A stretch of DNA of 64,000 bases. Origin: Amycolatopsis keratiniphila subsp. keratiniphila. GTDB taxonomy: Bacteria; Actinomycetota; Actinomycetes; Mycobacteriales; Pseudonocardiaceae. Shown here in pieces: positions 2,681-25,510 of the stretch. Each line of letters starts with the position of its first letter. The stretch's first letter is position 1. The notes under the pieces were generated by a model that saw only the letters and a program-made list of their open reading frames with translations, was not told the DNA's origin and did not search any database. The DNA is taken from NCBI RefSeq assembly GCF_001620365.2, contig NZ_LQMT02000011.1, positions 72,286 through 136,285 on the forward strand. The letters run 5' to 3'. Position numbers and translations under genes: made by a program.

Positions 2681-4759
2681 GTGAAAAAGGGCACTCGGGG
2701 GAGCACGGCTTGGCGGGCCCGGCTGCCGGTCGTGACGATCGTCGTGGTCTCGGTGGCGGTTTTGACGACCGCGGTCACCGGCGCGGCGAAACCGCCGCCG
2801 GGGATCCAAGAGATCCCCGGCGGCCACTGGGTCTACAACTCCCTGCTCCAGTCGGCTTTCCACATCGACGGCGGTACGGCGGGGATCGACGCGCAGGTCG
2901 CGGTGCCCGGCGATCCGGGCAGCCAGGTCGTGCAGGGGGACACCAGCGGCTACGTCGTGGGCGGTACCCGGATCACCCCGTTCGGCAAGTCGGACCTGAC
3001 CGCCGGGCCGCCGGGGGTGCCGCCCTCGGGCGAGGTCCCGGCCGGGGTGGAGACCGCGGGCGGCCCGTATCTGGTGTACCGGCAGGCCGGACAGATCATC
3101 CGGCTCGGCGATCCGCCCGCGCCGATCTCCGCCGGGGGACCGGTCGGCGACCCGGTCGCCACCGCGGAGGGGACACTGTGGCTGCCGCGTATCGCGTCCG
3201 GTCTGCTCTGCCGGCTGGACCGCGGCGCGGAGAACGTGTCCTGCCCGGTCACCCTGCCCGCCGGCCACTTCGGCGCACTGACCCTGGTGGGGGACGAACT
3301 GTACTTCGTCGACGCGTCCGACGGCGTCGTGCGTGCGGTCGAATCCGGTGGTCTCGGCGTGCCGGTCCCGATGGGGCTCGGCGCGGGCGCCGACCTCCGG
3401 ACGGCGGCCAACGACGTCGCCGGTCGCGTGGCCGTGCTCGACCCGGCGCGGAGCCTGCTGCATCTGGTCGACCCCGCTCCCGGGCCGCGGCGGCCGATCA
3501 CGGTGCCGCTCCCGCCAGGGCAGTACGACGCGCCGGTCGCGGCGGGTTCGGTGGTCGTCGTGGTCAACCGCACGTCGGGCAGGTTGTTCACCTACGACGC
3601 CGACGGCAGGCAGACCGACGACAAGCCGCTCCCGGCCGACGGCGGCACGGCACGGGTCGTCCGCGGCGAGGACGCGCACGTCTACGTCGACGGCGGCCAG
3701 GGCGCCCACGTCCTCGTCGTCGCCAAGGACGGCAAGGTCACCGACGTTCCCGTGGTACCGCCCACGGAGAAGAAGGATCAACCGGTCCCGGCGCAGCCCG
3801 CCCCGGGACAGGGGCCGGTGGCTCCGCCCGCTCAGCGAGGTGGCGAGGACGGGCGTCGCGGCCAGGACCCCGGTACCGACCGGCCCGGTCCCTCGAAGCC
3901 GAACCCGCCGCCGGTCACCCCGCCCGCCGTCCCGGCCAGTCCACCGGGCGCGCCGCCCGGGGTGTCGGCGACGGGAGAGGCGGGCGCGGTCACGGTCGCG
4001 TGGTCGGCCGCTCCCGCCAACCGGGCCGACGTGACGTCGTACCGGATCAGCTGGGCGGGTGGTTCCCGGACGGTGGACGGCGGCACCCGCCGGGTCAGGA
4101 TCACCGGGCTGGCGAACGGAACCCGGTACACGTTCACCGTCGTCGCGGTGAACAAGGCGGGCACCGGGCCGGGTGCTTCGGCGTCGGCGACCCCGGCGGC
4201 GGCCGCGGCCGCACCGGCGCTCACCGTGAGCCGCCGCGACGACGCCGCGATGCTCTCCTGGACCCGGCCGGACCTCGGCGGCGGGGAACTGGTGCACTAT
4301 CTCGTCACCGGTACCGGTTTCGCGCAGCAGACGGTCGCGGGCACCTCCGCGAGCTATCCCGGGCTGACCGCCGGGAATTCCTACACCTTCACCGTTCGCG
4401 CGGTGACCAGGACACCCGGCGGGCAGACGCGCGAAGGTCGGCCGGCGAGCCGGACGATCACCGTTCCCGCGCCGACGATCACCATCAGCCGCGGCCGGGA
4501 CACCTCCAGCGAGAACTGTCACGAACCGGACTGTGCCCAAGTCAACGTGACGATGAAGGGTTTCGAGCCGGGCAAGCGGTACGCGATCCGGCTCAGCTCG
4601 TCGAGCAACACCGACGTGCGGACCGAATACACCACGACCGATGCCGACGGTTCGGCGACCTACAACGAACTCAACTACGACGTACCCGGCCAGACCATCT
4701 GGGTCAGCGTGCAGACCCCGGACGGCCGGATCACCTCCAACAGGATCAGGTGGACTTAG
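2681..4759 (+). CDS. Surface protein: TM anchor, beta-propeller-like region, two Fn3 domains, Cys-pair C-terminal domain
   Basis: The product is 692 residues from GTG 2681. An earlier in-frame GTG at 2603 would add 26 residues before the basic/hydrophobic leader, so 2681 is preferred. A signal-anchor occupies about residues 15-36. Residues 40-360 contain short repeated strand motifs such as ELYFVDASDGVVRAVE and LLHLVDPAPGP, typical of beta-propellers. A Pro-rich linker spans about 363-426, and two fibronectin type III domains span about 427-506 and 510-600. The last 90 residues carry a Cys pair (ENCHEPDC) followed by VTMKGFEPG. A paralogue with the same layout lies at 23690-25510. The protein probably sits outside the membrane as the adhesive or structural part of the MoxR module. 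It overlaps the MoxR start by one base. Confidence 0.8.
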   Translation: MKKGTRGSTAWRARLPVVTIVVVSVAVLTTAVTGAAKPPPGIQEIPGGHWVYNSLLQSAFHIDGGTAGIDAQVAVPGDPGSQVVQGDTSGYVVGGTRITPFGKSDLTAGPPGVPPSGEVPAGVETAGGPYLVYRQAGQIIRLGDPPAPISAGGPVGDPVATAEGTLWLPRIASGLLCRLDRGAENVSCPVTLPAGHFGALTLVGDELYFVDASDGVVRAVESGGLGVPVPMGLGAGADLRTAANDVAGRVAVLDPARSLLHLVDPAPGPRRPITVPLPPGQYDAPVAAGSVVVVVNRTSGRLFTYDADGRQTDDKPLPADGGTARVVRGEDAHVYVDGGQGAHVLVVAKDGKVTDVPVVPPTEKKDQPVPAQPAPGQGPVAPPAQRGGEDGRRGQDPGTDRPGPSKPNPPPVTPPAVPASPPGAPPGVSATGEAGAVTVAWSAAPANRADVTSYRISWAGGSRTVDGGTRRVRITGLANGTRYTFTVVAVNKAGTGPGASASATPAAAAAAPALTVSRRDDAAMLSWTRPDLGGGELVHYLVTGTGFAQQTVAGTSASYPGLTAGNSYTFTVRAVTRTPGGQTREGRPASRTITVPAPTITISRGRDTSSENCHEPDCAQVNVTMKGFEPGKRYAIRLSSSSNTDVRTEYTTTDADGSATYNELNYDVPGQTIWVSVQTPDGRITSNRIRWT

Positions 4760-5739
4760 TGGTCACCATCGGCTCGATGACTCCCTTTCCCCCGCCCGGC
4801 GAGGTCTACGGACGCATCGCGAAGAACGTCCACAGTGTGTTGCGCGGCAAGGAAAAGATCGTCCGGCTCGCGGTCGCCGCGCTGTTCGCCGAGGGACATC
4901 TGCTGGTGGAGGACGTGCCCGGGGTCGGCAAGACGACACTGGCCCGCTGCCTGGCCAGGAGCGTCGGCGGATCGTGGAACCGCATCCAGTTCACCCCCGA
5001 CCTGTTGCCCGGCGACATCACCGGCGTCCCCGTCTACCACCAGAAGGAAGAACGCTTCGAATTCCACCCCGGCGGGGTGTTCGCGAACGTCGTCGTCGCG
5101 GACGAGATCAACCGGGGCACCCCGAAAACGCAGTCGGCCCTGCTCGAGGTGATGGCCGAGCGGACGGTCACCGTCGACGCCGTCCGGCACGAGGTACCGC
5201 GGCCGTTCCTGGTCGTCGCGACCCAGAACCCGATCGAGATGGCCGGGACCTACCGGTTGCCCGAAGCGCAGCTGGACCGGTTCCTGATGCGGCTCGACGT
5301 CGGTTATCCGGACCTAGCCTCCGAGGTCAAGGTGATCATGGGCGACTGCGCGGGCTTCGGCCCGGACGAACTGGCGCCGGTGGTGGACATCGAGACGGTG
5401 CGCCGGACGATCGGCCAGGTCCGGGCCGTCCACGTCGAATCCGCCCTCTGCGAGTACGCCGCCCGGCTCGCGGCCGCGACCCGTGAGCACGCCGCCCTGC
5501 GCTACGGGGCCAGCCCGCGGGGCAGCATCGCGCTGATCCGCGCCGGGCAGGCCTACGCCGCGACGGACGGCAGGGCGTTCGTCACCGTGGACGACGTCAA
5601 GGAGGTCGCACAGGCCGTTCTGGCGCACCGGCTGATCCTCACCGCCGATGCCGAGCTGAACGGCCGCGACCCCGGCGGAGTGGTGGACGAGGTCCTCGAT
5701 GCGACACCCGCCCCGGTGAGCGTGGGGCCGCGGGCCTGA
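4759..5739 (+). CDS. MoxR-family AAA+ ATPase (module 1)
   Basis: The product is 326 residues from GTG 4759, which overlaps the previous stop (TAGTG) and follows AGGTGG at 4747-4752. ATG 4777 is a possible alternative but has no ribosome site. It contains Walker A GVGKTT (Lys58), Walker B VVVADEINRG (Asp115-Glu116), sensor 1 ATQNP and the MoxR signature GTYRLPEAQLDRF. MoxR ATPases act as chaperones that remodel or load cofactors into partner proteins, usually encoded beside DUF58 and von Willebrand A proteins. The DUF58 and transglutaminase-like genes that overlap it are the expected partners. A close paralogue is at 16656-17666. Confidence 0.93.
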   Translation: MVTIGSMTPFPPPGEVYGRIAKNVHSVLRGKEKIVRLAVAALFAEGHLLVEDVPGVGKTTLARCLARSVGGSWNRIQFTPDLLPGDITGVPVYHQKEERFEFHPGGVFANVVVADEINRGTPKTQSALLEVMAERTVTVDAVRHEVPRPFLVVATQNPIEMAGTYRLPEAQLDRFLMRLDVGYPDLASEVKVIMGDCAGFGPDELAPVVDIETVRRTIGQVRAVHVESALCEYAARLAAATREHAALRYGASPRGSIALIRAGQAYAATDGRAFVTVDDVKEVAQAVLAHRLILTADAELNGRDPGGVVDEVLDATPAPVSVGPRA

Positions 5740-6866
5740 TGATCCGGCTGACCAAACGCGGGGCGGGCGTTCTCGCCGCGACCGTGGGGCTGTTCGTCCT
5801 CGGCCACTGGGCCGGTTATCCGTTCTTCCTCGCGATCGCGGGGGCCGGGGCCGGCGTGCTGATCGCGGCGATCGTCGCGACCGGACGACGTCCCCGCGTC
5901 GTGGTGTCCCGCCGGATCTCCCCGGACCGGGTGGAGCGTGGCAGGCCCGCGGCCGCCACCCTGCTGGTGCGCAATCCGGCCAGGCGGCGGCACGGTGCCT
6001 TCACCGCGGGGGACCGGGTCGGTGAGGCGACGCGGACGGTCGACATCCGCGCGCTGGGCCCCAACGCGGAAACCGCGCACAACTACGAACTGCCCACCGA
6101 GCGGCGTGGACGGCACCAGGTCGGTCCGCTGGTCCTCGAGCGGGCGGATCCCTTGGGGCTCGCGTCCCGGCGGCTGACCACGGGCGAGACCGCGATGCTG
6201 TGGGTCCACCCGAGGGTGCACGTGCTGTCCCCGCCCGGCGGCGGGCGGCCGCGGCACCACCACGAGGGGGCCGTCGCGGACGAACGGCTGCGCGGTTCCG
6301 AAGACCTGCGCGAGGTCCGCGAATACGTGCACGGCGACGAAATCAGGCATCTGCACTGGAAGGCGACGGCGAGGACCGGCAGCCTGATGGTGCGTGACCA
6401 CGTCGACCCGCATCAGCCCAGGTTCACCGTGCTGCTGGACTCCCGGTTGCGCGGCCCCCGGCTGGAGGACGCCGTCGACACGGCCGCGTCGCTGGCCGGT
6501 TCGGCGGCGCGCGCGGACCGGCCGACGCGGCTGGTCTCCTCCGGCGGTCTCGACGTCGACACCGGGGGAGGACCGCGGGCGGTGCGCCCGCTGCTGGACG
6601 CCTTGTGCGTGCTCGAACCGTCGTCCGGTCCGGCACTGGTCCCGGAGGGGTTGAGCCGCTCCGGGGTCGGCGGGCTGGCGGTGGTGACCGCCGGTGGTAC
6701 TCCGGCCGATCGGGTCGCGGTGGCCGCGTTGCGCGGCCGGTACTCGCCGTTGATCGTCTTCGTGCTCGGCGACGACGAGACGTTCGGCGGTATCCCCGGC
6801 GCGGTGGTGCTCCCGGTCTCCGATGCCGCCGAAGCGGCCCGGCGATGGAACGCGCTCGGCTTATGA
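5739..6866 (+). CDS. DUF58 membrane protein (module 1)
   Basis: The product is 375 residues. Two hydrophobic N-terminal segments (about 10-45) are followed by a beta-rich region and the DUF58 hallmark VREYVHGDEIRHLHWKATAR, then a von Willebrand A-like C-terminal half (FTVLLDSR, with a MIDAS-like Asp). ATG 5739 overlaps the MoxR stop by one base. DUF58 proteins occur almost always with MoxR and a TgpA-type protein and are thought to be clients of MoxR. The paralogue at 15532-16653 has the same motif with only small changes. Confidence 0.92.
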   Translation: MIRLTKRGAGVLAATVGLFVLGHWAGYPFFLAIAGAGAGVLIAAIVATGRRPRVVVSRRISPDRVERGRPAAATLLVRNPARRRHGAFTAGDRVGEATRTVDIRALGPNAETAHNYELPTERRGRHQVGPLVLERADPLGLASRRLTTGETAMLWVHPRVHVLSPPGGGRPRHHHEGAVADERLRGSEDLREVREYVHGDEIRHLHWKATARTGSLMVRDHVDPHQPRFTVLLDSRLRGPRLEDAVDTAASLAGSAARADRPTRLVSSGGLDVDTGGGPRAVRPLLDALCVLEPSSGPALVPEGLSRSGVGGLAVVTAGGTPADRVAVAALRGRYSPLIVFVLGDDETFGGIPGAVVLPVSDAAEAARRWNALGL

Positions 6867-8944
6867 ATCCACAATGGACACAACGGCTCGTGGTCGCGCT
6901 ACTGCTGCTCGCCTCGGGACTGCCCGGCCTGCTTTTCGCGCCGGTGTTCGGCGTGGGCTCCCTGCTGCTCCCGCTCGTCACGGTCCTTCTGGTCTGTTTC
7001 GCCGTCACCGAGGTCTCCCTGCGGGTGGCCGCGCTGCGTCCGTGGCGGCCGGTCCTGATGCTCGTCTCGGGCTTGCTCGCGTTGGGAGAGCTCGAATTCG
7101 GGCCTGGTCTCCCGGACGCGGCGATGCTGCGGGGACTGCTCGACGGGGTCACCCGGTCCTGGCAGCTGACACTCCAGTCGACCTGGCCCGCGCGGGCGGA
7201 CGCGGAACTGTTCCTGTTCGTGCCGCTCGCGGTGCTGTTCGCCGCGGTGCTCGCGGTGGAATCGGCGCGTGTGCCGGCGGTGGCCTTGCTTCCGGGGCTC
7301 GCCGTCGCCGCGTTGAGCCAGGCTTACGTGACGCTGTCCGGGCCGGTCGCCACCGCCGCCGGGCTGGCCTACGTCGTCGTCGCCGGCACGCTGCTCGCCC
7401 TGACCCGGCGGCGCGAGAGCAGGCTCGTCCTCCTGGTGCCCACCGTGGTGCTCGCCGTGGCGGTCTCGGCCGGGGTCACCGCCCTCGATCAGGGAGCGCG
7501 GCCCTCGCTGGCGCTCGAACACGACGCCGCCCCGGTGCCGCCGCTGCGGGTGGACAACCCGCTCGACCAGGTCGCCGACCGGCTGACCCGCCCGGGCGAA
7601 CCGGTCTTTCGCCACACCGGGACGGCCGGGACCGATCGCTGGCGGATCGCCGTCCTCACCGACTTCGACGGCGTCAGCTGGCGGGAGAACGGCGGCTATC
7701 TCCGGTTCGGTGCGACGCTCGGGACGGCCACCCGGCACGCGCGGATCACGGTCCCGCCCGGCGGTGGCCCCTGGCTGCCCAGCCAGCCTCTCCTGGCCAC
7801 GGTCACCGGGGCCGATCCGCTGGTCGACCCCGCGACCGGCACCCTCCTGCTGCCGGGACGGCGGGGGCCGGTGGAGTACGAGCTCGGCTGGCGTGAACCG
7901 GCGGTGGCGCCGGAGACGTTGCTGGACGCGGGAATCGAGGCCGCGGCGGTGACGGGCGGGGTCGGGCAGGTGCCGCCCGGCGTCGCAGAACTGGCGCGGA
8001 CGGCCACCGGCGGGCTGCGCCCGTCGTTCCGGGCAGCGCTGGTACTGGAGCGGTATCTCGCCGAGCACTACCGGCGGGCGACCGGTCCGGTACTGCCGAC
8101 CGGAAGCGGCTGGGCGCAGCTGAACAACTTCCTGTTCACCACTCGCGCGGGTACCAGTGAGCAGTTCGCCGCCGCCTATGCGGCGCTGGCGAGGCTGACC
8201 GGGATCCCCGCCCGGGTCGCGGTGGGATTCCGGTCCCCGCAAGGAGGTCCCGGCCCGGTGACAGTCCACAATGGAGACTCCTTCGCCTGGCCGGAGGTGG
8301 CCGTCGCCGGTGTCGGCTGGGTTCCGCTCGATCCGGCAGGCGGTGCGTCCCGCGGCACCGCCACGACGGCCGGTGCGTTGGCGCGGGCCACCGACCAGGC
8401 ACGCGACGCCCTCCCGCCAACGCAGCGGTTACATGATCCGGACGTTCGCCCGGACGGGCCCATCGCCCCCGAACCGCCCAATCCCGACACGTCGTGGATC
8501 GCGACCTTGCTCGCCTGGCTCGGAATCGGTGCGGTCTCGGTGCTCGTCTGTGCCGTCGTGGCGATTCCGGGGCGGCGGGCCGTCCGGACCGCCCGACGGC
8601 GCCGCCGCACCGGTCCGGCGGCGGTCGTCGCGGCCTGGATGGAGGCGAGGGACGTCCTGCGCGCGCACGACATCGTGGTGTCCCGCGGTGCCACGGCCCG
8701 CGAACTCGCCAGAGGGTTACCGTCCACAGTGGACAAATCTGTGGTGGAAGGCCTGGAATGGCTCGCTCGCCTGGTGGACATCGCGCTGTGGTCCCCGTAC
8801 GGCGCCGACGACCGGACGGCCGCGCAGGCGTGGTCGGCGGTCCGGGCGATCCGGAAGGGGCTCACGAAGGTCTCGTTCCCGGCCCGGTTGCGAGCCGCGT
8901 TCGACCTGGGCAGCCTGCGGGAGCCGGGACTCGTGGCCGAATGA
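6863..8944 (+). CDS. TgpA-type transglutaminase-like membrane protein lacking catalytic Cys and His (module 1)
   Basis: The product is 693 residues. About seven membrane segments lie in the first 210 residues, then a large extracytoplasmic part with the transglutaminase core, and a last membrane segment near 550-575 followed by a cytoplasmic tail. In an active core the motif reads G-x-C-x-x-[FY]-A and H-A-W. Here it reads GTSEQFA (Ser432 in place of Cys) and DSFAWPEV (Phe474 in place of His). The structural Trp and the WVPLDP strand are kept. The fold is therefore clear but thiol transglutaminase or protease chemistry is not expected. ATG 6863 overlaps the DUF58 stop (ATGA). Confidence 0.88.
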   Translation: MNPQWTQRLVVALLLLASGLPGLLFAPVFGVGSLLLPLVTVLLVCFAVTEVSLRVAALRPWRPVLMLVSGLLALGELEFGPGLPDAAMLRGLLDGVTRSWQLTLQSTWPARADAELFLFVPLAVLFAAVLAVESARVPAVALLPGLAVAALSQAYVTLSGPVATAAGLAYVVVAGTLLALTRRRESRLVLLVPTVVLAVAVSAGVTALDQGARPSLALEHDAAPVPPLRVDNPLDQVADRLTRPGEPVFRHTGTAGTDRWRIAVLTDFDGVSWRENGGYLRFGATLGTATRHARITVPPGGGPWLPSQPLLATVTGADPLVDPATGTLLLPGRRGPVEYELGWREPAVAPETLLDAGIEAAAVTGGVGQVPPGVAELARTATGGLRPSFRAALVLERYLAEHYRRATGPVLPTGSGWAQLNNFLFTTRAGTSEQFAAAYAALARLTGIPARVAVGFRSPQGGPGPVTVHNGDSFAWPEVAVAGVGWVPLDPAGGASRGTATTAGALARATDQARDALPPTQRLHDPDVRPDGPIAPEPPNPDTSWIATLLAWLGIGAVSVLVCAVVAIPGRRAVRTARRRRRTGPAAVVAAWMEARDVLRAHDIVVSRGATARELARGLPSTVDKSVVEGLEWLARLVDIALWSPYGADDRTAAQAWSAVRAIRKGLTKVSFPARLRAAFDLGSLREPGLVAE

Positions 8945-10185
8945 CCGGAAACGTGTTCGGCGCACCCCTCGGCATCGGGCCGGTCGCGACCGTCTATCCC
9001 GCGACCTACGCGGGGGTACCGGTCGCGATGAAGGTCTTCCCTGCGCGGCTCGATCGAGCGACCTTGTCGGCGGTGGAACGCGATCGCGACCGGTTGCGGG
9101 CGGTGGCCTCCGCGCTGCCGGTCGACGGCGTCGACCAGTTGCCCGGCGGGCGGCACGCGCTCCGGATGGAACGGTGCACGCAGTCCCTCGCCGCGCTGCT
9201 GGGCCGGCTGGGAAGGCTTCCCACGGGCGATGCCGTCGTACTCGGCCATACCGTCGCGACCTGTCTGGCCTCCGCGCACGCCGCCGGGGTCGTGCACGGC
9301 GGTGTCCACCCCGCGAACGTGCTGTTCCGCACGAACGACGAACCGGTCCTCGCCGACTTCGGCGTCGCGCTGCGGCAGGCGTTCCCGCGCGATCCGACGC
9401 GGTCGCTCGAATACCTGGCGCCGGAGACCCTGCGCACCGACACGTTCGACGAACGGACCGATCTGTACGGCCTGGGACTGGTGCTGTACCTGGCCCTGAC
9501 CGGCGACCATCCGCAGCCCGGCAGGCTCGGGGAACCGATGGGCGAGCGGTTGCTGAGGCTGCTGCGCACCCCGGTGCCGCCGATCGACCGGCCCGATGTG
9601 CCGGTCATCCTGTCGGCGATGGTGAGCAGGCTGCTCGCCCCGGATCCGGCGCACCGCCCGCCGGACGCCGCGTGGGTCGCCGACCGGCTCGCCGAAATGT
9701 TCCCCCGCCCCGCGGAACCGGACCGACCTCCCCCGTCGAACGAGCGCGAAGACGCCGCCCCGCCCACACCGGCGAAGGCCCGCCGTTCGATCGGTGGCCT
9801 CGTAGTCGGTGCGGTGGCGGTCGTCCTCGGTGTGGTGGTCGCGTTCCTGATCGGCGATCGGCGGCCGGAGGTCGTCACCACGACTCCGGCCGCCACGCCC
9901 GGACCGGAGCAGGTGGTGGACCTCGAACTGGAGCTCGCCGAGCCGGCCGACCGGGGAAACCAGGTCATGCTCGCTTGGACGAGCAGTTCGGACATCGTCG
10001 ACTACGCGGTGATCGTCGCCCCCGAGAACGAGCCCAACCGGACCGTGCTGGCCGGGCGGGCGCACGCGATCACCATTCCGGTCGATCCCGTGCGCCGCTA
10101 CTGCTTCGAGGTGCAGGCGACCGACAGCCGGGTCATCCACACGAGCCCGCCCAAGTCGATCCGCGGAGCCGTTTGCCGCCCCTGA
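8941..10185 (+). CDS. Membrane pseudokinase with extracytoplasmic Fn3-like domain (module 1)
   Basis: The product is 414 residues. The N-terminal kinase fold keeps Lys31 (VAMKVF), the Asn of the catalytic loop and DFG (Asp139). The catalytic loop, however, reads HGGVHPAN (His119-Gly-Gly121), so the proton-accepting Asp of HRD and the usual Lys are absent. A membrane segment lies near 282-303. The outer part ends in a Fn3-like domain (VMLAWTSSSDIVDYAVIV to RYCFEVQATDS). ATG 8941 overlaps the transglutaminase stop (ATGA), making it the last gene of the operon. A paralogue at 22160-23422 has the same loss. A scaffold or allosteric signalling role is inferred. Confidence 0.87.
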   Translation: MTGNVFGAPLGIGPVATVYPATYAGVPVAMKVFPARLDRATLSAVERDRDRLRAVASALPVDGVDQLPGGRHALRMERCTQSLAALLGRLGRLPTGDAVVLGHTVATCLASAHAAGVVHGGVHPANVLFRTNDEPVLADFGVALRQAFPRDPTRSLEYLAPETLRTDTFDERTDLYGLGLVLYLALTGDHPQPGRLGEPMGERLLRLLRTPVPPIDRPDVPVILSAMVSRLLAPDPAHRPPDAAWVADRLAEMFPRPAEPDRPPPSNEREDAAPPTPAKARRSIGGLVVGAVAVVLGVVVAFLIGDRRPEVVTTTPAATPGPEQVVDLELELAEPADRGNQVMLAWTSSSDIVDYAVIVAPENEPNRTVLAGRAHAITIPVDPVRRYCFEVQATDSRVIHTSPPKSIRGAVCRP

Positions 10186-15535: not shown

Positions 15536-16653
15536 CCCGTCACCTCGTTCCACTTGCGCACCGCGTGCGCGGCGTCGGCGGCGTTGATCACGCGGACACC
15601 CGGAACGACGGGCGGTTCGGTCGCGGCGAGGTCGACGAGGAACAGCGAGGAATAGCGGGGCCGCAGGGCGGTCAGCCCGTCCAGCCTGCCGGTGGTGACG
15701 GCCATCAGACAGCCGCCCTGATCGCGCGCCGACGCCAGCTCGCGCGTCACGAGCGCCTCGCCGGCGTCTTGGCCGAGCTGGCACAGCTCGTCGAGCAGAA
15801 GCCGCGAACCGAGCGGGCCGCCGGCGGTGGCGAGGTCGAGACCGCCGGAGCCGACGAGCCGGGTGTGGTGCCCGGCCATCGCGGACGCGTGCAGAAGTGA
15901 CGCGGCGACGTCGACGGCTTCTTCGAAAACCTCGGGAGTGAAGGACGAACGGCGGGTGTCGAGCAGGAGCGTGAACCGCGGCTGCTGCGGATCGGCGTAG
16001 TCACGGACCATCATCCGGCCGGTCCGCGCGGTGGCTTTCCAGTGCAGGTGCCGGATTTCGTCGCCCGGCTGGTATTCACGGACGTCGCGAAGGTCGAGCG
16101 AACCGCGCAACGAGTCGGTCGTGCTGCCTTCGTGGTGATGGCGTGGGTAGCCGCCGGTCAGCGCACGCGCGGGGTGCCGTCGCGGATGTACCCAGAGCTC
16201 CGCGGTCTCCCCGGCCGAAAGCCGGTTCCTGGCCAGGCCGAACGGGTCGACGCGGTGCAGTGTCAGCGGCCCGACCGGGAGCCTGCCGCGGCGTCCGGTA
16301 GGCAGTTCGTAGCGATAGGTGGCTTCGGCGTCCTGGGCGAGCGACCTGACCCGGATGGTCTGGACGGCGGCGCCTGCCTTGTCCCTGGCGTCGAATCCGC
16401 GCTGGCGGCGCCCGGCGAGGTTGCGGACCGTCAGCTTCGCGAGCGCCGGACGTCCGCGCTCGACGCGTTCCGGATACACCTCACGGCTGACGCCGACACG
16501 CAGACCGCGCGCGGTGACCACGACCGCGGCGGCCACCGCGGCCAGCCCGGCCACACCCAGCACGCGGAACAGCGGGTAGCCCGCCCATTCGGCGGCGACG
16601 AGCAGCAGTGCCGACACCACGAGCAGGACCACGCCGCGGGCGGTCAGCCGCAT
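15532..16653 (-). CDS. DUF58 membrane protein (module 2)
   Basis: The product is 373 residues. It has two N-terminal hydrophobic segments, the DUF58 motif VREYQPGDEIRHLHWKATAR, and a von Willebrand A-like C-terminus (FTLLLDTRRSS). It is paralogous to the DUF58 protein at 5739-6866. It starts two bases after the MoxR stop and overlaps the transglutaminase-like gene by four bases, so MoxR-DUF58-TgpA keep the same order and coupling as in module 1. Confidence 0.92.
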   Translation of the reverse strand: MRLTARGVVLLVVSALLLVAAEWAGYPLFRVLGVAGLAAVAAAVVVTARGLRVGVSREVYPERVERGRPALAKLTVRNLAGRRQRGFDARDKAGAAVQTIRVRSLAQDAEATYRYELPTGRRGRLPVGPLTLHRVDPFGLARNRLSAGETAELWVHPRRHPARALTGGYPRHHHEGSTTDSLRGSLDLRDVREYQPGDEIRHLHWKATARTGRMMVRDYADPQQPRFTLLLDTRRSSFTPEVFEEAVDVAASLLHASAMAGHHTRLVGSGGLDLATAGGPLGSRLLLDELCQLGQDAGEALVTRELASARDQGGCLMAVTTGRLDGLTALRPRYSSLFLVDLAATEPPVVPGVRVINAADAAHAVRKWNEVTG

Positions 16654-18051: not shown

Positions 18052-20865
18052 TCACGGCTCCGGGAAGTAGGTGACTGGTCGCCACTCGTTCGCGTTCGGC
18101 GCGTACTCGTAGACGACGCGGGCGTTCTTCTGAGGCGCCACGACGAGATCGGGAATGCGATTGCCGTTCGCGTCCAGTGCCAGGGGACTGCTCGGCCCGC
18201 CGACCCGGCGCGCGACTTGCGCCGACTCACCGAATCCTCGAGGGTCGTTCGTGGTCACAAGGACTCTGTGCCGGACCGGTTTCCCGGTAACCGGATGGAC
18301 ATAGAGCTGCTGACCGGTCACAGGATCAGTGTAGGAAACCACTGTGCCGTCGCGGAGGTCGGCTTCGAGCTGGGCTCGTGCCCGTCCCAGCGCTTCGGCT
18401 TCGGCCTGCGCGCTCCGGAACCGGGAAGCACGGCTTGCCGGCGCGGCCAGACCGTCCGGGGCCATGCCGGTGCGTACTCGCGTGGCCTGCTGCCCGTCCG
18501 TCGTCTGGTAGCCATGCCTGCCATGACCGTGGCCTTCCTGTGCGGCGTTCGGATGCGGATTCTCCAGCGGCCGATCGGCATCGGCGACCGACCGCTCGGC
18601 ACGCCGTCGAGATTGTTCTGCCCGCCATTGCTCCCGTGCGCCACCGCTGTAGCAGTCCTCACCGCCGGCGTTGTGGGTGAGCACGTCTTGGCCGCCGACG
18701 TTGACGTAGTACGTGTGCAGGCCTTCGATCGTGAGGTTGTGCACCTGTTGCCGTTGCGTCCGCTCGTCCAGGGCGACGACTCGCAGGAGACGGCCGTCGG
18801 GTGTACGGAGCAGGTTTCCTCGGACGAGGTCTTCGGCGTCGGTCCACCGGCCGGTGTCGGCGACCCAGAACGGGTGCTCGTCAGTGGCTGTGACAGTGCC
18901 GGTGGCGTCTCCTCGGTCGCCGTCGGTGTCGACGGTGATCCGTACCAGCTCCTTCAGGCCCTGTCCGGGAATGAGGTCGATCACCGGCCGGGCCTGAGTG
19001 AGGCCTGTGACGGGGTCGGTCGCCAGCACCCGGTCGCCGAGCCTGACTTGTTCGATCGGCTTGTAGGTGCCGTCGGCCAGCAGCACGGGCGTGCCGGGTA
19101 CGAAGCTGTTCGGTGTGGGGCAAGTGTCCGTGCCGGTGTCCCGCCGGTCCCGATCCGACGGGCGGGCGGGGGAATCGCCCCGGCCGGCCCGGGGCAACGT
19201 GGGCAGTTGCGTCACCGGATTCGGGAGCACCCTGCTGCCGCGCCGGTCGCCATTTTTCGGCGACCGTGAAGCCGTCCGTGGTGCGGCCGTGTCCGGAGTA
19301 ATCGGCGGCGGCGCGCTGTCGACTCGATCGGGTGCCGTCTGGTGGTCCGGCCGCGGCCTGGCGCCGGTGTCCAGATCGGGTCCCCGACCTCCGGGCAACG
19401 CCTCGACCGCGTTGAGTACCCGCTTGCCGACGCCGACACCGGGGATGAACATGGTGCCGATGTCGACCGCCGCGCGGCCGACGACACGTTCCGGCTTGTC
19501 GCTGTTCCAGTCCTCCTTGTACGGGCGGATGACCTCGTCCACCACCTTGCCGGGATTTCTCACGATCTCGGCGACCGCCTCACCGCGTTCTTTGATGCGT
19601 TTGTCGGCCGCGCGCCACTCTTCGCTGTCCGGATCGGCCTCCGACCACGTCGTGGCGTCCTGGTTCGCCTGCACGAAGCTGCCGATGGCGGCCGGGATCG
19701 CCTCCAGGCTCTCCACGATGGTTTCCCGCGCTTCGTCGGCCACATTGCCGACCAGGTGGTCATCCGGGTCGTTGGCCGCCGCGGGTGGTTGCGCCGGCCT
19801 GGGGCGGGATGGGGTCCGGGACGCCATCCCGGGGAACTCATCGGACCGCCCACGCGTGGGACCCGCGGTCAGCAGGCTGTCGAGATTCTCGCGGACACCC
19901 CCGCGCGCTCCTGTGCTTCTGCCGTCGGCACGGCCGCGATCGGTGACCACGGCGTTCGGCACCATGCCCGGAAACCGGTCCCCGCTATCGGACTTCGGTT
20001 CGCCGGTAAGCACATCGCGCAGGTGATCCGGCAGTCGTGCCGGTGCGGAAATCTCTCCGGCGCCGCTGTCGTCCTTGTGGGTTTGTGGTCGGTCTTTCTT
20101 TGCTTTCCGGGCGTCTGCCGATTGCTGTCGTGATCGTTGTGGGGTCGGTGATGTCCTGGCGATCCTCTCCTCTAGCGTTTCCTCCTTTTTGGGGTGGGAC
20201 AGGTCGAGTGGGAAGCGTTCTGTTGCTTCGGGTCGGGATCCTGCCGAGGTCAGGTTCTTGAGGATCTCTCCGGCGCCGCCGTTGGCTTTCGGGGTTTGTG
20301 GTCGGTCTTTCTTTGCTTTCCGGGCGTCTGCCGATTGCTGTCGTGATCGTTGCGGAGTCGGTGATGTCCTGGCGACCCTCTCCTCTAGCGTTTCCTCCTT
20401 TTTGCCGTCATTTTTGTTGTCCGCCGGCCGGCTTTCCCTGGCCTTACGGACGTCGGCCGCCTGCTGCCGCGCTCGTTCCGGGGTCGGCCCGGTCAGCCGG
20501 CCCGCCGGCGACTCGGCTTTCTTCTTGTCATCCTTGCCTACGTCTGACGATTTGCCGACTTTCCGCACGACGGTCGGTGTCTTGACGACCTTTGTCGTCT
20601 TCTTGTCGCCCGCCGGCCGGCTTTCCCTGGCCTTACGGACGTCGGCCGCCTGCTGCCGCGCTCGTTCCGGGGTCGGCCCGGTCAACCGGCCCGCGGGCGA
20701 CTCCGCCTTCTTCGGGTTCGGATCCTTGGCAGGTGGCTGACCGGCGGTGTTCCTCGGCTCCGCGTGCGCGTCCGTCGCCCCGAGCACGCCGAACACCGCG
20801 GTCAGGACGCCGCCGGCCACCGAGTAGAGGATCGCTCTCGTCGGGTCTGCTTTGTTGCTCACCAC
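18052..20865 (-). CDS. Secreted polymorphic toxin with Hint (intein-like) processing domain
   Basis: The product is 937 residues from GTG 20865 (GGAGG upstream). It begins with a Sec signal ending ATDAHA. Residues about 45-290 are a charged, Lys-rich stalk built of two repeat types. A central region has few landmarks. A PT-Hint domain follows, starting at Cys582 (CPTPNSFVPGTPVLLADG) and ending at His731-Asn732 (VLTHN), which would release the C-terminus by self-cleavage. The 205-residue tip contains GHGHGRHGYQTT (His784) and later HPVTGKPVRHRVLVTT. The RHG motif recalls BECR-type RNase toxins, but this is only a resemblance. The next gene is the presumed immunity protein. Confidence 0.85.
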   Translation of the reverse strand: MVSNKADPTRAILYSVAGGVLTAVFGVLGATDAHAEPRNTAGQPPAKDPNPKKAESPAGRLTGPTPERARQQAADVRKARESRPAGDKKTTKVVKTPTVVRKVGKSSDVGKDDKKKAESPAGRLTGPTPERARQQAADVRKARESRPADNKNDGKKEETLEERVARTSPTPQRSRQQSADARKAKKDRPQTPKANGGAGEILKNLTSAGSRPEATERFPLDLSHPKKEETLEERIARTSPTPQRSRQQSADARKAKKDRPQTHKDDSGAGEISAPARLPDHLRDVLTGEPKSDSGDRFPGMVPNAVVTDRGRADGRSTGARGGVRENLDSLLTAGPTRGRSDEFPGMASRTPSRPRPAQPPAAANDPDDHLVGNVADEARETIVESLEAIPAAIGSFVQANQDATTWSEADPDSEEWRAADKRIKERGEAVAEIVRNPGKVVDEVIRPYKEDWNSDKPERVVGRAAVDIGTMFIPGVGVGKRVLNAVEALPGGRGPDLDTGARPRPDHQTAPDRVDSAPPPITPDTAAPRTASRSPKNGDRRGSRVLPNPVTQLPTLPRAGRGDSPARPSDRDRRDTGTDTCPTPNSFVPGTPVLLADGTYKPIEQVRLGDRVLATDPVTGLTQARPVIDLIPGQGLKELVRITVDTDGDRGDATGTVTATDEHPFWVADTGRWTDAEDLVRGNLLRTPDGRLLRVVALDERTQRQQVHNLTIEGLHTYYVNVGGQDVLTHNAGGEDCYSGGAREQWRAEQSRRRAERSVADADRPLENPHPNAAQEGHGHGRHGYQTTDGQQATRVRTGMAPDGLAAPASRASRFRSAQAEAEALGRARAQLEADLRDGTVVSYTDPVTGQQLYVHPVTGKPVRHRVLVTTNDPRGFGESAQVARRVGGPSSPLALDANGNRIPDLVVAPQKNARVVYEYAPNANEWRPVTYFPEP
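20079..20404. repeat. Direct repeat pair A inside the toxin stalk
   Basis: Two 113-base copies (20079-20191 and 20292-20404), 213 bases apart, differ at about three positions. They encode the repeat unit EETLEERxARTSPTPQRSRQQSADARKAK read on the minus strand, split here by its own junction. The base composition is clearly T-richer than the surrounding genes on this strand, suggesting recent duplication of foreign sequence. Confidence 0.85.
20421..20705. repeat. Direct repeat pair B inside the toxin stalk
   Basis: Two copies of about 96 bases (20421-20516 and 20610-20705), 189 bases apart, are nearly identical. They encode the unit AESPAGRLTGPTPERARQQA followed by ADVRKARESRPA on the minus strand. 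Units A and B share the pattern TPxRxRQQxAD-RKA, so all four are diverged copies of one stalk repeat. Confidence 0.85.
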
Positions 20866-20888
20866 TGTCGTCGCCTCCGTTCGGGACA

Positions 20889-20943
20889 GTCCGTGAAGGC
20901 CTCCCTCCCTACGCTCAAGGTAGGAAAGGAGGCCTTCACGGAC
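20889..20943. repeat. Long palindrome, copy A (probable terminator)
   Basis: The 16-base arm beginning GTCCGTGAAGGCC (20889-20904) pairs perfectly with 20928-20943. The inner part CCTAC/GTAGG extends the stem. It lies between the stop of the 20947-21270 gene and the start of the toxin gene, both on the minus strand, so it could terminate the upstream unit. The same arm sequence recurs at 23490-23544. Confidence 0.8.
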
Positions 20944-20946
20944 AGC

Positions 20947-21270: not shown

Positions 21271-21274
21271 CGCG

Positions 21275-22048
21275 TCACCAGGCGTCGGCCGAGACCGTGC
21301 CGTTGGTCGACGTCGCGCTGGACCACGAGGACGCGCCCTTGCCCGACGAGCTCGCCGTCTTCGTGACCGTGTTGCCCGACTTGTGGGTGGTCTTCGTGAT
21401 CGTCTTGCGGTCGGGAAGGTCGGACTTCTTGGCCCGGTCGTGCTTCGTCTCGTGGTCGTGGCAGGGCTTCTTGCCCGACGGCCGCTTCATCGATTCGCGC
21501 AGCTCCTTCAAGTCCTTTTCGGACTGGGCGAGCCGCTTTTTGGCATCCCGTAACGTCTTCTCGGCGTTCTTGACCGTCTTGCGCGCCTCGTCGACGGCCT
21601 TGATCGCGGTGTCCAGCTTCGGCGCGGAAGGGGCGATGGTCAGCTTCACCGGAGACACCGTCGGCGCCTTGGCCGCCGCCTGCACCACGAACCGCTTCTG
21701 CACCGGTGCCTGTCGCACCTTCTTCACCTGCGGCTTCGACAACGCGACCGGTACGGCGGCGCGATGAGCCGCGGCGGGCTTGACCTTGTGTACCTGCTTG
21801 GGCGCGGCCTGCTGCGCGGGCGCCGCGTGTGCCTTCGGCGAGACGTTCACCGGCTTCGGCGCGACCGGTGCGGCACCGGGCACGTGCGCCGGTGTCGGCG
21901 CCTGCGGGGGAGCCGGGGCCGGTGCGGGGACAGGGGCCGCGTTGTCGGTCGAGCTGTCCACCAACGCGTTCGCCGTCGTCGCGCCGATCGCGGCGGTCGC
22001 CAGCCCGGCCACCCCGTAGACGGCCGCGCGCCGCAGATTTCGCTTCAT
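21275..22048 (-). CDS. Secreted Ala/Pro-rich coiled-coil protein
   Basis: The product is 257 residues. ATG 22048 is fixed by AAGGAGG six bases upstream. A signal peptide (MKRNLRRAAVYGVAGLATAA to TTANA) is followed by a Pro/Ala stretch, a basic region, a predicted coiled coil at about 140-195 (DTAIKAVDEARKTVKNAEKT and onward), then a Thr/Ser-rich C-terminus ending SADAW. I recognise no family. It diverges from the pseudokinase gene across 111 bases, so a shared promoter region is likely. It may be an accessory of the toxin or of module 2. Confidence 0.7.
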   Translation of the reverse strand: MKRNLRRAAVYGVAGLATAAIGATTANALVDSSTDNAAPVPAPAPAPPQAPTPAHVPGAAPVAPKPVNVSPKAHAAPAQQAAPKQVHKVKPAAAHRAAVPVALSKPQVKKVRQAPVQKRFVVQAAAKAPTVSPVKLTIAPSAPKLDTAIKAVDEARKTVKNAEKTLRDAKKRLAQSEKDLKELRESMKRPSGKKPCHDHETKHDRAKKSDLPDRKTITKTTHKSGNTVTKTASSSGKGASSWSSATSTNGTVSADAW

Positions 22049-22159
22049 GTTCGCCTCCTTGGTCATGGGCGAAGAGTGGCCTCCCGGGGTCCATGGCCAA
22101 TACATCCGCGGTACATCGGGATTCGCCGTGGACGGCCGGCGGATGACAGACTGGGGACG

Positions 22160-23422: not shown

Positions 23423-23489
23423 TGCCTCCTGCCGTAGGGCAGCACGCGTGTTCAGGCGGACGACACGCTTCTGTACCTCCTTGTCCGAA

Positions 23490-23544
23490 GTCCGTGAAGG
23501 CCTCCTTGAGGGACTCTGGGTCCCTCAAGGAGGCCTTCACGGAC
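23490..23544. repeat. Long palindrome, copy B (bidirectional terminator)
   Basis: A perfect 24-base stem (23490-23513 with 23521-23544) has a 7-base loop CTCTGGG. The outer 16 bases are identical to copy A. It sits between the convergent pseudokinase and Fn3 genes, as expected for a two-way terminator or REP-like element. The rest of 23423-23689 has no gene I can support. Confidence 0.85.
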
Positions 23545-23577
23545 TGGGTATATAGGCACGCGGCGGGAGCGGAGGCG

Positions 23578-23612
23578 TGACTCGCGTGATCAGGGACGTG
23601 ATTCGCGTGATT
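23578..23612. repeat. Short direct repeat GTGAYTCGCGTGAT
   Basis: GTGACTCGCGTGAT and GTGATTCGCGTGAT occur about 20 bases apart in the non-coding spacer after palindrome copy B. The function is unknown. It could be part of a dispersed intergenic element together with the palindrome. Confidence 0.5.
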
Positions 23613-23689
23613 GGAGGCCGCATTCGGGTGTTTCGCCATAAGCCGCGGTCCTTGCGGAGAGGTCGTGACGCTGTAGGCGCGCGAAGCCG

Positions 23690-25510
23690 CTAGCCCGACT
23701 GCCAGGTGATGACGTTGGACTTCACGCCGGTGTCGGTGACCACCCACACCTGGTTGCCGACCTGACCGAAGTCGAACGCCTCGAAGGTGAGGTTCCCGCT
23801 GGCCGGGATGTCACAACCGCGACCCTCGTTGCTGTAGTCGGGATCGCTCGACCACGGCCGGACCTTCACCCGGGTGCCGGGCTGGAAACCCTTCATCACC
23901 ACACGGATCTTGGCGCACTTCGGGGCTTCGCACGTCTCGTTGTAGGTCCCGGTCTTGCCGCGGCTGATGGTGATCGTCGGCCTCGGCCCGGCGGGCGGGG
24001 AAACCCTCGCCGTGGCCGGGGCGCCTCGCCCCGCGCGGTTCTCCGCCGCGACCGTGATCGTGTACGTCACGCCGTCGCGCAGGTTCGGGATCGACGTCGA
24101 CCGCGCGGCACCATCGAGCGCGGCCGAACCCGCGCCCGCTCCGGAAGACGGCGTCCACGACACGCGGTATCCCGTCACCGCCGCGCCGTTCGGGGCCGCC
24201 GCGCCCCAGGTGACGTTCGCCGTCGTGCCCGCCAAGGTGGCGCGGAGGCCACTGGGAAGGCCGGGTGGGCTCGCCGCGAGTGCCTTGGGGGACGTCGCGG
24301 GCGGTGGCGGTTTCGGCCTCGACTGCGATGGCGGCCGGACGCCTCCGTTCCCCCGTTGCGGGGGCAGCTGGGTCGTCGAGGTCGGGGGCACCGTCGTCGG
24401 CTGGGGGACCGGCGGCTTGTCGGCGGTCACCGCGACCTGCGCGACCGTGCCCTCCGGATCGACCACCAGGACATGGTTTCCTTGCGCGCCTTCGATGTAG
24501 ACCCGTTTGTCCTCGCCGCGCGAGAGCTTGGGCGAGCCGTTCTCCGGCGGGATCGGCATCGAGTGCCGTGGCAGGCCGTCGGGGGAGTAGGTGACCACGG
24601 TGTTGCGGGTCAGGTCGAGCAGGACGACCGCCGACGACGAAGCGGTCGGCCGCGAGTACTGGCCGTCGGACAGGTCGATCGTCTTGGGCGGGCCGGGGGC
24701 GCGCCCGGCGCTCAACCCACTCGCGTCGACGAAGTACAGCTTGCGCAGGCCCGGTTCGAGGATCGCGATCCGTCCGGCCGCGTCGGCCGAGGCGATCTGC
24801 GCGCCCGCGCTGAACGACGCGTTCAGTGCCAGCGGCTTGCCGAGCCCGGTGTCGGTGACGGTCTGCAGGGTGCTCGCCGTGGTGTCGACGAACGCCGGGG
24901 TGTCGCCGACGACGGTCAGCGCGCCGGTATGCCCGCGGGCGGCCTGCACCGTGCACCCGACGGTGTCTGTGCCCTTCGCCAGCCGGCACAGTTTCCCGTC
25001 GCCCGTGCGCTGCAGCCAGACCGTGCCGTCCGAGGTGGCGACCGGATCGCCGAGGGAGCCGCCCGTGTCGATCGACGTGAAGGCGTCGCCGAGCCGGACG
25101 ACACGACCGGCCTCGCGGAAGACGAGGTACGGCCCGCCGGCGGTTTCGAGCAGGAACGGCCGTTCCCCGGTCACCGGCTGGTCCACCGAGCGGCTCACGG
25201 TGAGATCGGACTTGCCGAATTCGACGATCCGCCGCTGGCCGATCACATACGCGCTCGTGTCGCCCTGGACCACGTCGGAGCCGGGTTCGAGATCCGGCAC
25301 GGCGGCCTGGGCGTCCACGCTCCGGTTGGCGCCGTTGACGAGGAAGACCAAGCCGAGAGCGGGGCTGGCGACCCAATGCCCGGCCTGCGTGAGTCCCAAG
25401 CCGGGGACGGGTTTCACCGCACCGGTGGCGACGGCGACCACGATCGCCACACAGGTCGCGGTCAGCACGGCGAGCGGCAGACGCCGCTTGAATCCCCTCT
25501 CCGGCACCAC
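23690..25510 (-). CDS. Surface protein: TM anchor, beta-propeller-like region, one Fn3 domain, Cys-pair C-terminal domain (module 2)
   Basis: The product is 606 residues from GTG 25510, paralogous to the protein at 2681-4759. A signal-anchor (RRLPLAVLTATCVAIVVAVA) is followed by propeller-like repeats (about 40-345), a Pro/Thr linker, a single Fn3 domain (about 420-505) and the C-terminal domain with Cys pair ETCEAPKC followed by VVMKGFQPG. It has one Fn3 domain fewer than its paralogue. It shares the 5' end region with the histidine kinase gene (55 bases upstream, same strand), so the two-component system could be cotranscribed with it. Confidence 0.8.
   Translation of the reverse strand: MVPERGFKRRLPLAVLTATCVAIVVAVATGAVKPVPGLGLTQAGHWVASPALGLVFLVNGANRSVDAQAAVPDLEPGSDVVQGDTSAYVIGQRRIVEFGKSDLTVSRSVDQPVTGERPFLLETAGGPYLVFREAGRVVRLGDAFTSIDTGGSLGDPVATSDGTVWLQRTGDGKLCRLAKGTDTVGCTVQAARGHTGALTVVGDTPAFVDTTASTLQTVTDTGLGKPLALNASFSAGAQIASADAAGRIAILEPGLRKLYFVDASGLSAGRAPGPPKTIDLSDGQYSRPTASSSAVVLLDLTRNTVVTYSPDGLPRHSMPIPPENGSPKLSRGEDKRVYIEGAQGNHVLVVDPEGTVAQVAVTADKPPVPQPTTVPPTSTTQLPPQRGNGGVRPPSQSRPKPPPPATSPKALAASPPGLPSGLRATLAGTTANVTWGAAAPNGAAVTGYRVSWTPSSGAGAGSAALDGAARSTSIPNLRDGVTYTITVAAENRAGRGAPATARVSPPAGPRPTITISRGKTGTYNETCEAPKCAKIRVVMKGFQPGTRVKVRPWSSDPDYSNEGRGCDIPASGNLTFEAFDFGQVGNQVWVVTDTGVKSNVITWQSG

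What the first reader, a model, noticed from the sequence alone, without database searches (positions are those of the whole stretch)
2681..25510. Duplicated five-gene Fn3-MoxR-DUF58-TgpA-pseudokinase module, one copy intact and one rearranged
Module 1 (2681-10185) is one overlapping operon. Each of its five genes has a paralogue nearby: TgpA 13403, DUF58 15532, MoxR 16656, pseudokinase 22160 (inverted) and Fn3 23690. The set-wise duplication, with order kept only for MoxR-DUF58-TgpA, shows that all five belong to one system. It also shows that the Fn3 surface protein and the pseudokinase are core parts rather than chance neighbours. MoxR-DUF58-TgpA is a known trio; I do not know of a described system that includes the other two.
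Basis: partly seen in the sequence, partly recalled or inferred. Interest (0 to 1): 0.8.

Follow-up and report, generated by a model that had tools for sequence, protein, structure and literature searches.

The report
Actinobacterial surface module with dead enzymes
A soil actinomycete carries three old, separately inherited versions of a five-gene surface module already known from gut bifidobacteria, and comparison with relatives indicates that its supposed transglutaminase has lost its catalytic residues, as has, in most of this bacterial family, its kinase.

Summary
Observation confirmed: five overlapping genes (Fn3, MoxR, DUF58, TgpA, pseudokinase) at 2681-10185 and a paralogue of each at 13403-25510 (46-71% identical). 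The five do form one system: 69 of 94 Fn3 modules on long stretches hold all five, and the three window-relevant lineages recur in all five gene trees. But the modules are no local duplication: module 1 is nearest A. iheyensis-type loci, module 2 A. regifaucium, a third copy lies elsewhere, and joining modules 1 and 2 is rejected (AU p about 1e-6). Module 2's order recurs in another Amycolatopsis. The system is not undescribed: it is the PFNA cluster of bifidobacteria (kinase, fn3, MoxR, duf58, tgm). What I did not find in print: the TgpA/TGM lacks its catalytic Cys in all members read (0 of 116 rows here; 13 of 13 in Bifidobacteriaceae, where the whole triad is gone), while ordinary trios keep it. 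In MoxR and TgpA trees all dead trios lie on one side of one branch. The module kinase has HRD in the one bifidobacterial contig read and in other distant members, but its catalytic Asp is gone in 95 of 101 rows here. Best reading: an ATP-driven envelope receptor built on a pseudo-transglutaminase; function is inferred.

The parts
2681..4759 (+). Fn3 protein, module 1: N-terminal TM, beta-propeller, Pro-rich linker, two Fn3 domains, C-terminal domain with a Cys pair (692 aa from 2681)
   Evidence: fn3 83.6 bits, 2 stretches; 46% to the module 2 copy; propeller by the model of its paralogue
4750..5739 (+). MoxR AAA+ ATPase, module 1; Walker A/B and sensor 1 motifs intact
   Evidence: AAA_3 199 bits; motif table
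5739..6866 (+). DUF58 protein, module 1; no DxSxS metal-site motif at the aligned place, as in the ordinary DUF58 rows
   Evidence: 34.8 bits
6863..8944 (+). TgpA-like polytopic membrane protein, module 1: pseudo-transglutaminase (Cys to Ser, His to Phe, Asp kept)
   Evidence: Transglut_core 61.8, TgpA_N 34.4 bits; motif tables; profile aligned to solved TgpA 6g49
8941..10185 (+). Membrane pseudokinase, module 1 (HRD to HGG; VAIK Lys, Asn and DFG kept), TM, ectodomain with two Cys
   Evidence: Pkinase 63.5 bits; motif table
808..2544 (-). Intact Ser/Thr kinase (HRD, DFG), divergent from module 1; accessory of the module 1 lineage
   Evidence: Pkinase 170.8 bits; HRD; an HRD kinase in 14 of 16 loci of that lineage
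35..811 (-). FHA-like protein in the same run as the kinase
   Evidence: FHA 17.9 bits, below the 20.7 cut-off; homologue in 14 of 16 loci of the lineage
13403..15535 (-). TgpA-like pseudo-transglutaminase, module 2 (Cys to Ser, His to Val, Asp kept)
15532..16653 (-). DUF58 protein, module 2
   Evidence: 47.6 bits
16656..17666 (-). MoxR ATPase, module 2, motifs intact
   Evidence: 205 bits
17727..18047 (-). Small acidic protein beside the Hint gene, possible immunity protein (inferred)
   Evidence: no Pfam hit; conserved with the Hint gene in A. regifaucium, 64%
18052..20865 (-). Pretoxin-Hint domain protein inserted between MoxR and the rest of module 2
   Evidence: PT-HINT 63.1 bits; 69% homologue in L038/L181, none found in L134
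21275..22066 (-). Low-complexity protein with a signal-like N terminus (by eye), role unknown
   Evidence: 73% homologue in L038/L181
22160..23422 (+). Membrane pseudokinase, module 2 (HGG), inverted relative to the rest
23690..25510 (-). Fn3 protein, module 2 (606 aa): helix 11-29, beta-propeller about 40-364, linker, Fn3, C-terminal beta domain

Best explanation
Each module is a PFNA-type cluster: a branch of the MoxR-DUF58-TgpA trios of actinobacteria that has an Fn3 surface protein and usually a membrane kinase and has lost transglutaminase catalysis. Proposed working: outside the membrane, the anchored propeller-Fn3 protein, the transglutaminase-fold domain of the TgpA-like protein (now a binding domain, not an enzyme) and the Fn3-like ectodomain of the kinase form a receptor for an envelope or extracellular ligand. 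Inside, DUF58 couples it to the MoxR ATPase, which remodels the complex. In distant members the kinase has HRD, and in B. longum it is reported to phosphorylate MoxR. In most Pseudonocardiaceae that kinase has become a pseudokinase that keeps its ATP-binding residues and probably acts as an ATP-sensitive scaffold; in the module 1 lineage a separate intact kinase and an FHA-like protein may supply the phospho-signal, and most other modules have neither within about 10 kb. Shown here: membership by descent, one branch separating dead from live trios, loss of the residues, propeller fold (predicted), three lineages in one genome. Inferred: receptor role, ligand, coupling, what MoxR remodels.
For: Co-inheritance: 69 of 94 long modules have all five genes (kinase counted from 200 bits); three lineages recur in 5 of 5 gene trees. 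Dead TgpA: 0 of 116 readable rows in Fn3-family loci have the Cys and 1 of 115 has the His (rows include near-copies); the own genome's ordinary trio on C4 keeps Cys-His-Asp. Outside the family, 13 of 16 dead trios and 0 of 43 live trios have an Fn3 protein upstream of MoxR; without the three loci fetched by the Fn3 profile it is 10 of 13 against 0 of 43, and among 31 loci of unknown state when fetched 4 of 7 against 0 of 24, p 0.001. Pfam finds fn3 in 13 of 16 upstream ORFs of dead trios and not among the 25 listed of 31 families for live ones. MoxR tree and TgpA tree each put all live trios on one side of a single branch, support 95 and 100. Bifidobacteriaceae: 13 of 13 DUF58-linked TGMs lack the whole triad and group inside the dead clade; one contig shows HRD kinase, Fn3, MoxR, DUF58, TGM in that order. 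Lys, Asn and DFG Asp of the module kinase are invariant in 34 rows. Phosphorylation of MoxR by Pkb2: PMC8430577 (passages).
Against: No experiment, and no ligand known in actinomycetes. Of 94 long modules 10 lack the kinase, 6 have Fn3-DUF58-TgpA without MoxR, 8 hold Fn3 alone, so no single part is strictly required. Two dead trios (L296, L312) have no Fn3 neighbour, and L315 has one only by eye. Six of 101 module-kinase rows keep the Asp (HGD 4, HLD 1, HRD 1), some of them in Pseudonocardiaceae. A Ser at the Cys place could in principle act as a nucleophile, and pseudokinases can retain some activity. The kinase and FHA beside module 1 may serve other genes.
Confidence: 0.6

Rival explanations
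1. Envelope assembly machine: MoxR and DUF58 act as chaperones that mature or export the propeller-Fn3 protein and similar adhesins; the TgpA remnant is a membrane platform and the pseudokinase a structural partner, with no sensing.
For: MoxR motifs are intact in all 22 family rows and 16 dead-trio rows read while the other enzymes are not; the Fn3 gene is first in the run and overlaps MoxR; some distant Fn3 partners are long adhesin-like proteins with Big_9 and cadherin-like domains; PMC8430577 itself suggests that MoxR may help fold FN3.
Against: Does not explain why a membrane kinase with an Fn3-like ectodomain is kept, HRD in distant members and dead here; six loci keep Fn3-DUF58-TgpA without MoxR nearby.
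Confidence: 0.25
2. The two window modules arose by local duplication and the second was then rearranged.
For: The two modules lie side by side and share all five families.
Against: Different nearest relatives in all five families; AU p 1.5e-6 and 1.1e-6 against joining them; module 2 with its downstream regulators is collinear with A. regifaucium and A. sp. CA-126428, module 1 aligns best with A. iheyensis and A. sp. 2-2.
Confidence: 0.03
3. A kin-recognition or conflict system in which the Hint gene of module 2 is the effector and the module its receptor or release switch.
For: A pretoxin-Hint gene and a small acidic neighbour sit inside module 2 and in its A. regifaucium counterpart; MoxR-vWA systems have been proposed as conflict systems (PMC7159879, passages).
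Against: The pair was not found at the same place in A. sp. CA-126428, and a Hint homologue only in L038/L181 (one place) and, partial, in L169. Of ten proteins scanned (module 1, the Hint set and neighbours; module 2's own five were not), only the two kinases match defence models well, and these are kinase models.
Confidence: 0.08
4. The TgpA-like protein is still an enzyme that uses Ser or a relocated residue.
For: Ser stands at the Cys place in 107 of 116 rows and the surrounding motif is strongly conserved.
Against: The His is lost too in 114 of 115 rows, the Asp also in 13 of 13 bifidobacterial rows, and other members have Thr, Pro, Glu, Asp, Gly or Ala at the Cys place.
Confidence: 0.05

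Closest known systems
PFNA cluster of Bifidobacterium (pkb2, fn3, aaa-atp, duf58, tgm; PMC8430577, PMC6803598, passages)
   Same: The same five protein families; Fn3-MoxR-DUF58-TgpA in the same order; in the one contig read, a TM and propeller-like N terminus of the Fn3 protein and an Fn3-like kinase ectodomain by eye; MoxR and TgpA in one clade; catalytic Cys of TgpA lost in both.
   Different: Here the module kinase comes last or inverted and is a pseudokinase; the window's Fn3 proteins are short (606 and 692 aa) without the Big_9/cadherin-like repeats of the bifidobacterial ones; three lineages in one genome; an Amycolatopsis rather than a gut commensal; bifidobacterial TGM has lost the Asp as well.
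Ordinary MoxR-DUF58-TgpA trio (own genome C4; P. aeruginosa PA2875-2873, PMC3507681, passages; that PA2875 and PA2874 are MoxR and DUF58 proteins is recalled)
   Same: Gene order, AAA+ motifs, TgpA_N and transglutaminase fold.
   Different: Ordinary TgpA keeps Cys-His-Asp/Glu, and no Fn3 protein was found upstream of MoxR in 43 of 43 trios.
MoxR-vWA ternary conflict systems with beta-propellers (PMC7159879, passages; Pfam bpMoxR)
   Same: MoxR plus a vWA-like partner plus a propeller; use of inactive enzymes.
   Different: There the propeller is fused to the vWA protein; bpMoxR is only a weak match here (30.9 bits against 199 for AAA_3); the term DUF58 does not occur in that paper's text.

Membership tests
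PFNA cluster | Kinase, Fn3, MoxR, DUF58 and TgpA/TGM families together | tested here: met
   69 of 94 long modules
PFNA cluster | Gene order kinase-fn3-MoxR-duf58-tgm on one strand | tested here: not met
   Fn3-MoxR-DUF58-TgpA order met in module 1, but the module kinase comes last (module 1) or inverted between Fn3 and MoxR (module 2). In the other modules it is opposite-strand and downstream of TgpA in 54 of 71, same-strand downstream in 15, opposite-strand upstream in 2
PFNA cluster | Common descent with bifidobacterial members | tested here: met
   MoxR of 2 and TGM of 13 Bifidobacteriaceae genomes fall inside the dead clade; the family was recognised by a recalled 16S genus primer
PFNA cluster | Functional Ser/Thr kinase as module kinase | tested here: not met
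   HGG in both window copies; the intact kinase beside module 1 falls in another group of the kinase tree
PFNA cluster | Kinase phosphorylates MoxR; FN3 binds cytokines | not testable with these tools
   reported for B. longum (PMC8430577, passages)
TgpA transglutaminase | Cys-His-Asp catalytic triad | tested here: not met
   Ser and Phe/Val at the Cys and His places, Asp kept
TgpA transglutaminase | TgpA_N membrane part and Transglut_core fold | tested here: met
Protein kinase (active) | HRD catalytic Asp | tested here: not met
   HGG; Lys, Asn and DFG Asp kept
MoxR-vWA-beta-propeller ternary system | bpMoxR as the best MoxR model and a propeller fused to the vWA protein | tested here: not met
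   bpMoxR 30.9 bits against AAA_3 199 bits; the propeller is on the Fn3 protein

The most novel reading that the evidence does not exclude
PFNA-type clusters are a phylum-wide actinobacterial receptor in which a transglutaminase fold was turned once, early, into a binding domain; 'TGM' of the bifidobacterial PFNA operon is not an enzyme. In most Pseudonocardiaceae the kinase has died as well, leaving MoxR as the only intact enzyme of the core, and single genomes run up to three separately inherited versions in parallel, one of them rewired to an intact kinase and an FHA-like reader.
Probability: 0.5. Interest if true: 0.75.

Novelty: new variant of a known kind. Interest (0 to 1): 0.6.

Why it matters
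The PFNA operon has been studied as a species-specific device of gut bifidobacteria that senses host immune signals. Here it appears as one branch of an actinobacteria-wide family that is frequent in Pseudonocardiaceae (47 of 150 genomes), so its core role probably predates gut hosts. Its 'transglutaminase', described as presumably a cysteine protease, lacks the catalytic Cys in all members read, which gives a simple biochemical test. The module also offers natural pairs of HRD and dead kinases in the same architecture, and trees in which the five parts can be followed together.

Tried and rejected
Local duplication: rejected by nearest relatives, trees and AU tests. DUF58 metal site as a further dead enzyme: rejected as a distinguishing mark, because the DxSxS motif was not seen at the aligned place in live trios either. 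Defence-system reading: PADLOC matches to generic kinase models, a LuxR-domain match and a weak TRIP13 match only. The Fn3 profile over 396 phylum genomes found 4 genomes, the own one included, too narrow for the wider family; TgpA was used instead. A first handful of small genomes guessed to be bifidobacteria had no long TgpA match. A 16S primer scan of 394 class genomes found none; the order-level scan of 238 did, in 16 genomes: 13 of family f117 and 3 outside it. I passed on 16 of the 18 f117 genomes; 12 of the 13 f117 genomes with the site are in genera g405 and g415 and one contig used for gene order (G923) has the site with one mismatch; 8 of the 9 g415 genomes passed on carry it (7 exact). 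The ectodomain of the pseudokinase and the C-terminal domain of the Fn3 protein were not searched on their own; no statement is made about their relatives.

Selection in the 2x2 table (59 trios): L182-L184 were fetched because they matched the Fn3 profile; L279-L284 because their TgpA looked dead, L285-L288 because it looked live; L188 because it is the own genome's. L220-L238 and L289-L316 were taken from the lists, the latter for family spread, but for 14 of these the live state was already known. Without L182-L184: 10 of 13 dead and 0 of 43 live have Fn3; among the 31 of unknown state when fetched: 4 of 7 and 0 of 24, p 0.001. Rows dropped before the count: L181 (same family as the window) and L222, L223 (no MoxR). 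Rows share ancestry, so the Fisher p of 1.4e-10 overstates independence. In the live set 36 of 43 had a same-strand upstream ORF for Pfam, many of them weak as genes, and 6 of 31 matched families were not listed. Counts include near-copies, because named and unnamed loci overlap. The trees are FastTree trees with some long branches; one search's kinase tree has partial and long rows and is used only loosely.


Full report
WHAT IS THERE. Module 1 is one run of five overlapping genes; possible starts give overlaps of 1-10 bases at each junction. The paralogue pairs are 46% (Fn3), 46% (kinase), 47% (TgpA), 54% (DUF58) and 71% (MoxR) identical. The window lies in a 9.09 Mb genome, by inference of the genus Amycolatopsis: same-genus handle G015 has a contig of the same length (1,401,297) as A. 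regifaucium NZ_LQCI01000034.1, with the match at the same place. The genome holds a third complete module on contig C2 and an ordinary MoxR-DUF58-TgpA trio on C4.

ONE SYSTEM. An Fn3-propeller profile found matches in 47 of 150 genomes of the host family, 21 of 46 genera, and in 78 named loci. After removal of copies with the same Fn3 stretch, 107 modules remained, the two of the window included; of 94 on stretches over 16.5 kb, 69 have all five genes, 10 lack the kinase, 5 lack MoxR and kinase, 1 lacks MoxR, 1 has Fn3, MoxR and kinase only, and 8 have Fn3 alone (the kinase is counted from 200 bits). With 62 of the 72 modules that have all five (10 near-copies of the core lineage left out), each of the five gene trees shows the module 1 lineage (16 rows; supports 36, 91, 98, 97, 96 for Fn3, MoxR, DUF58, TgpA, kinase), the group of module 2 with L038 and L134 (97, 98, 81, 81, 100) and the genus-core lineage of the third copy (8 rows; 99-100). 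The wider 18-row group of module 2 is a clade in only two of five (Fn3, kinase). Distances between genes correlate at 0.75-0.93.

NOT A LOCAL DUPLICATION. Module 1's nearest relatives are A. sp. 2-2 and A. iheyensis in all five genes. Module 2's are A. regifaucium (90-95% in four genes; its TgpA was a fragment and was completed) and then A. sp. CA-126428. Holding modules 1 and 2, or their groups, together is rejected (AU p 1.5e-6 and 1.1e-6 on 28 concatenated rows). DNA of window 13402-30072 is collinear with A. regifaucium in pieces of 81-90%, while 2643-10176 aligns best with A. iheyensis and A. sp. 2-2 at 73-77%. The inverted kinase of module 2 is an arrangement shared with L134; module 2 differs from L134 by a Hint-domain gene and a small neighbour between MoxR and the rest, present in A. 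regifaucium and not found in L134.

DEAD TRANSGLUTAMINASE. Both window TgpAs have Ser at the catalytic Cys and Phe or Val at the His, with the Asp kept. A profile alignment to the solved P. aeruginosa TgpA (6g49) puts Ser on Cys and Leu on His; activity of that protein was reported in PMC3507681 (passages). In Fn3-family loci 0 of 116 readable rows have Cys, 1 of 115 has His and 113 of 115 have Asp. Among 59 trios outside the family, 16 are dead and 43 live; 13 of 16 dead and 0 of 43 live have an Fn3 protein upstream of MoxR. Part of that sample was chosen: without the three loci fetched by the Fn3 profile it is 10 of 13 against 0 of 43, and among the 31 whose state was unknown when fetched 4 of 7 against 0 of 24, p 0.001. 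L315 has an Fn3-like protein by eye; L296 and L312 have none. In FastTree trees of MoxR and of TgpA, all live trios lie on one side of one branch, supports 95 and 100. The MoxR tree does not contain the trait, so this is independent support for one origin; without an outgroup the direction, loss rather than gain, is inferred from the ordinary triad being general.

BIFIDOBACTERIA. The PFNA cluster of bifidobacteria consists of pkb2, fn3, aaa-atp (MoxR), duf58 and tgm, in some species with prpC, a hypothetical gene and fha (PMC8430577, PMC6803598; passages). All 13 read GDSEQYA, [T/Q/E/A]AWVE and FYP: Cys, His and Asp all replaced. Three of the genomes also have a second TgpA with the triad intact (L333-L335). 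On one contig (G923) the order is kinase (HRD, DFG), Fn3 protein, MoxR, DUF58, TGM, the PFNA order; Pfam confirms fn3, Big_9, AAA_3, DUF58 and Transglut_core there. The 13 TGMs, and MoxR of two genomes, fall inside the dead clade, and live versus dead still needs one change in each tree. In my searches no listed title or abstract, and no passage I read, reports that PFNA TGM is catalytically dead; one search listed 10 of 260 papers, and most subscription papers are not held.

HOW IT MAY WORK. Shown: parts, topology by prediction, co-inheritance, loss of residues. Established elsewhere: MoxR ATPases act with vWA-type partners as remodelling chaperones (recalled; also said in PMC12067865, passages); Pkb2 phosphorylates MoxR in B. 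longum (PMC8430577). Inferred: propeller-Fn3, pseudo-transglutaminase and kinase ectodomains form one extracytoplasmic receptor; MoxR-DUF58 changes its state with ATP; kinase or pseudokinase reports or gates it. The main rival is an assembly machine for the Fn3 protein.

VERDICT. A member by descent of the PFNA family, differing in kinase state and gene order; a new variant of a known kind. The most useful outcome is the correction that the PFNA transglutaminase is a pseudoenzyme by sequence in all members read, and that the system reaches far beyond gut bifidobacteria. On re-checking I softened several counts (kinase Asp, selection of trios, module 2's wider clade); none changes the odds.

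Noticed in passing
window 17727-20865: A pretoxin-Hint gene with a small acidic neighbour is inserted between MoxR and the upstream part of module 2; present in A. regifaucium (69% and 64%), not found in A. sp. CA-126428.
   Followed up: partly
window 25565-30065: Regulator genes (histidine kinase, two OmpR-type response regulators, a BTAD regulator, a LuxR-type gene) stay beside module 2 in A. regifaucium and A. sp. CA-126428; cross-matches suggest that the two response regulators are about 70% alike in DNA.
   Followed up: no
window 10644-13280: A large LuxR-family regulator with an AAA_16 domain separates the two modules; no match at 1e-8 in the module loci searched.
   Followed up: no
L139, L162, L075, L084, L085, L159: Loci with Fn3, DUF58 and TgpA but no MoxR within about 10 kb, so MoxR may be supplied from elsewhere or be dispensable there.
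   Followed up: no
L107, L112, L114, L115, L146, L148, L158, L177: Propeller-Fn3 genes without MoxR, DUF58, TgpA or a module kinase of 200 bits within about 10 kb.
   Followed up: no
L037 (third module) and kin such as L039, L074: By eye, the Fn3 proteins of the genus-core lineage end in a second TM-like stretch with a basic tail, so they may be anchored at both ends.
   Followed up: no
L053, L106, L124: Two pseudokinases per locus (HGS and HGR), adjacent in L106 and L124 and apart in L053; in L053 and L124 MoxR stands upstream of Fn3 instead of downstream.
   Followed up: no
L296, L312: Dead TgpA (Ala at the Cys place) in MoxR-DUF58 trios without an Fn3 neighbour: a possible third kind of trio.
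   Followed up: no
L123 (JOAA01, titled Rhodococcus rhodnii NRRL B-16535): Module sequences very close to those of Kibdelosporangium aridum in the tree, which suggests that the record is mislabelled.
   Followed up: no
L096 (same family as the window's genome): A MoxR-DUF58-TgpA set followed by three distant propeller proteins; its TgpA has Ala for Cys but keeps His.
   Followed up: no
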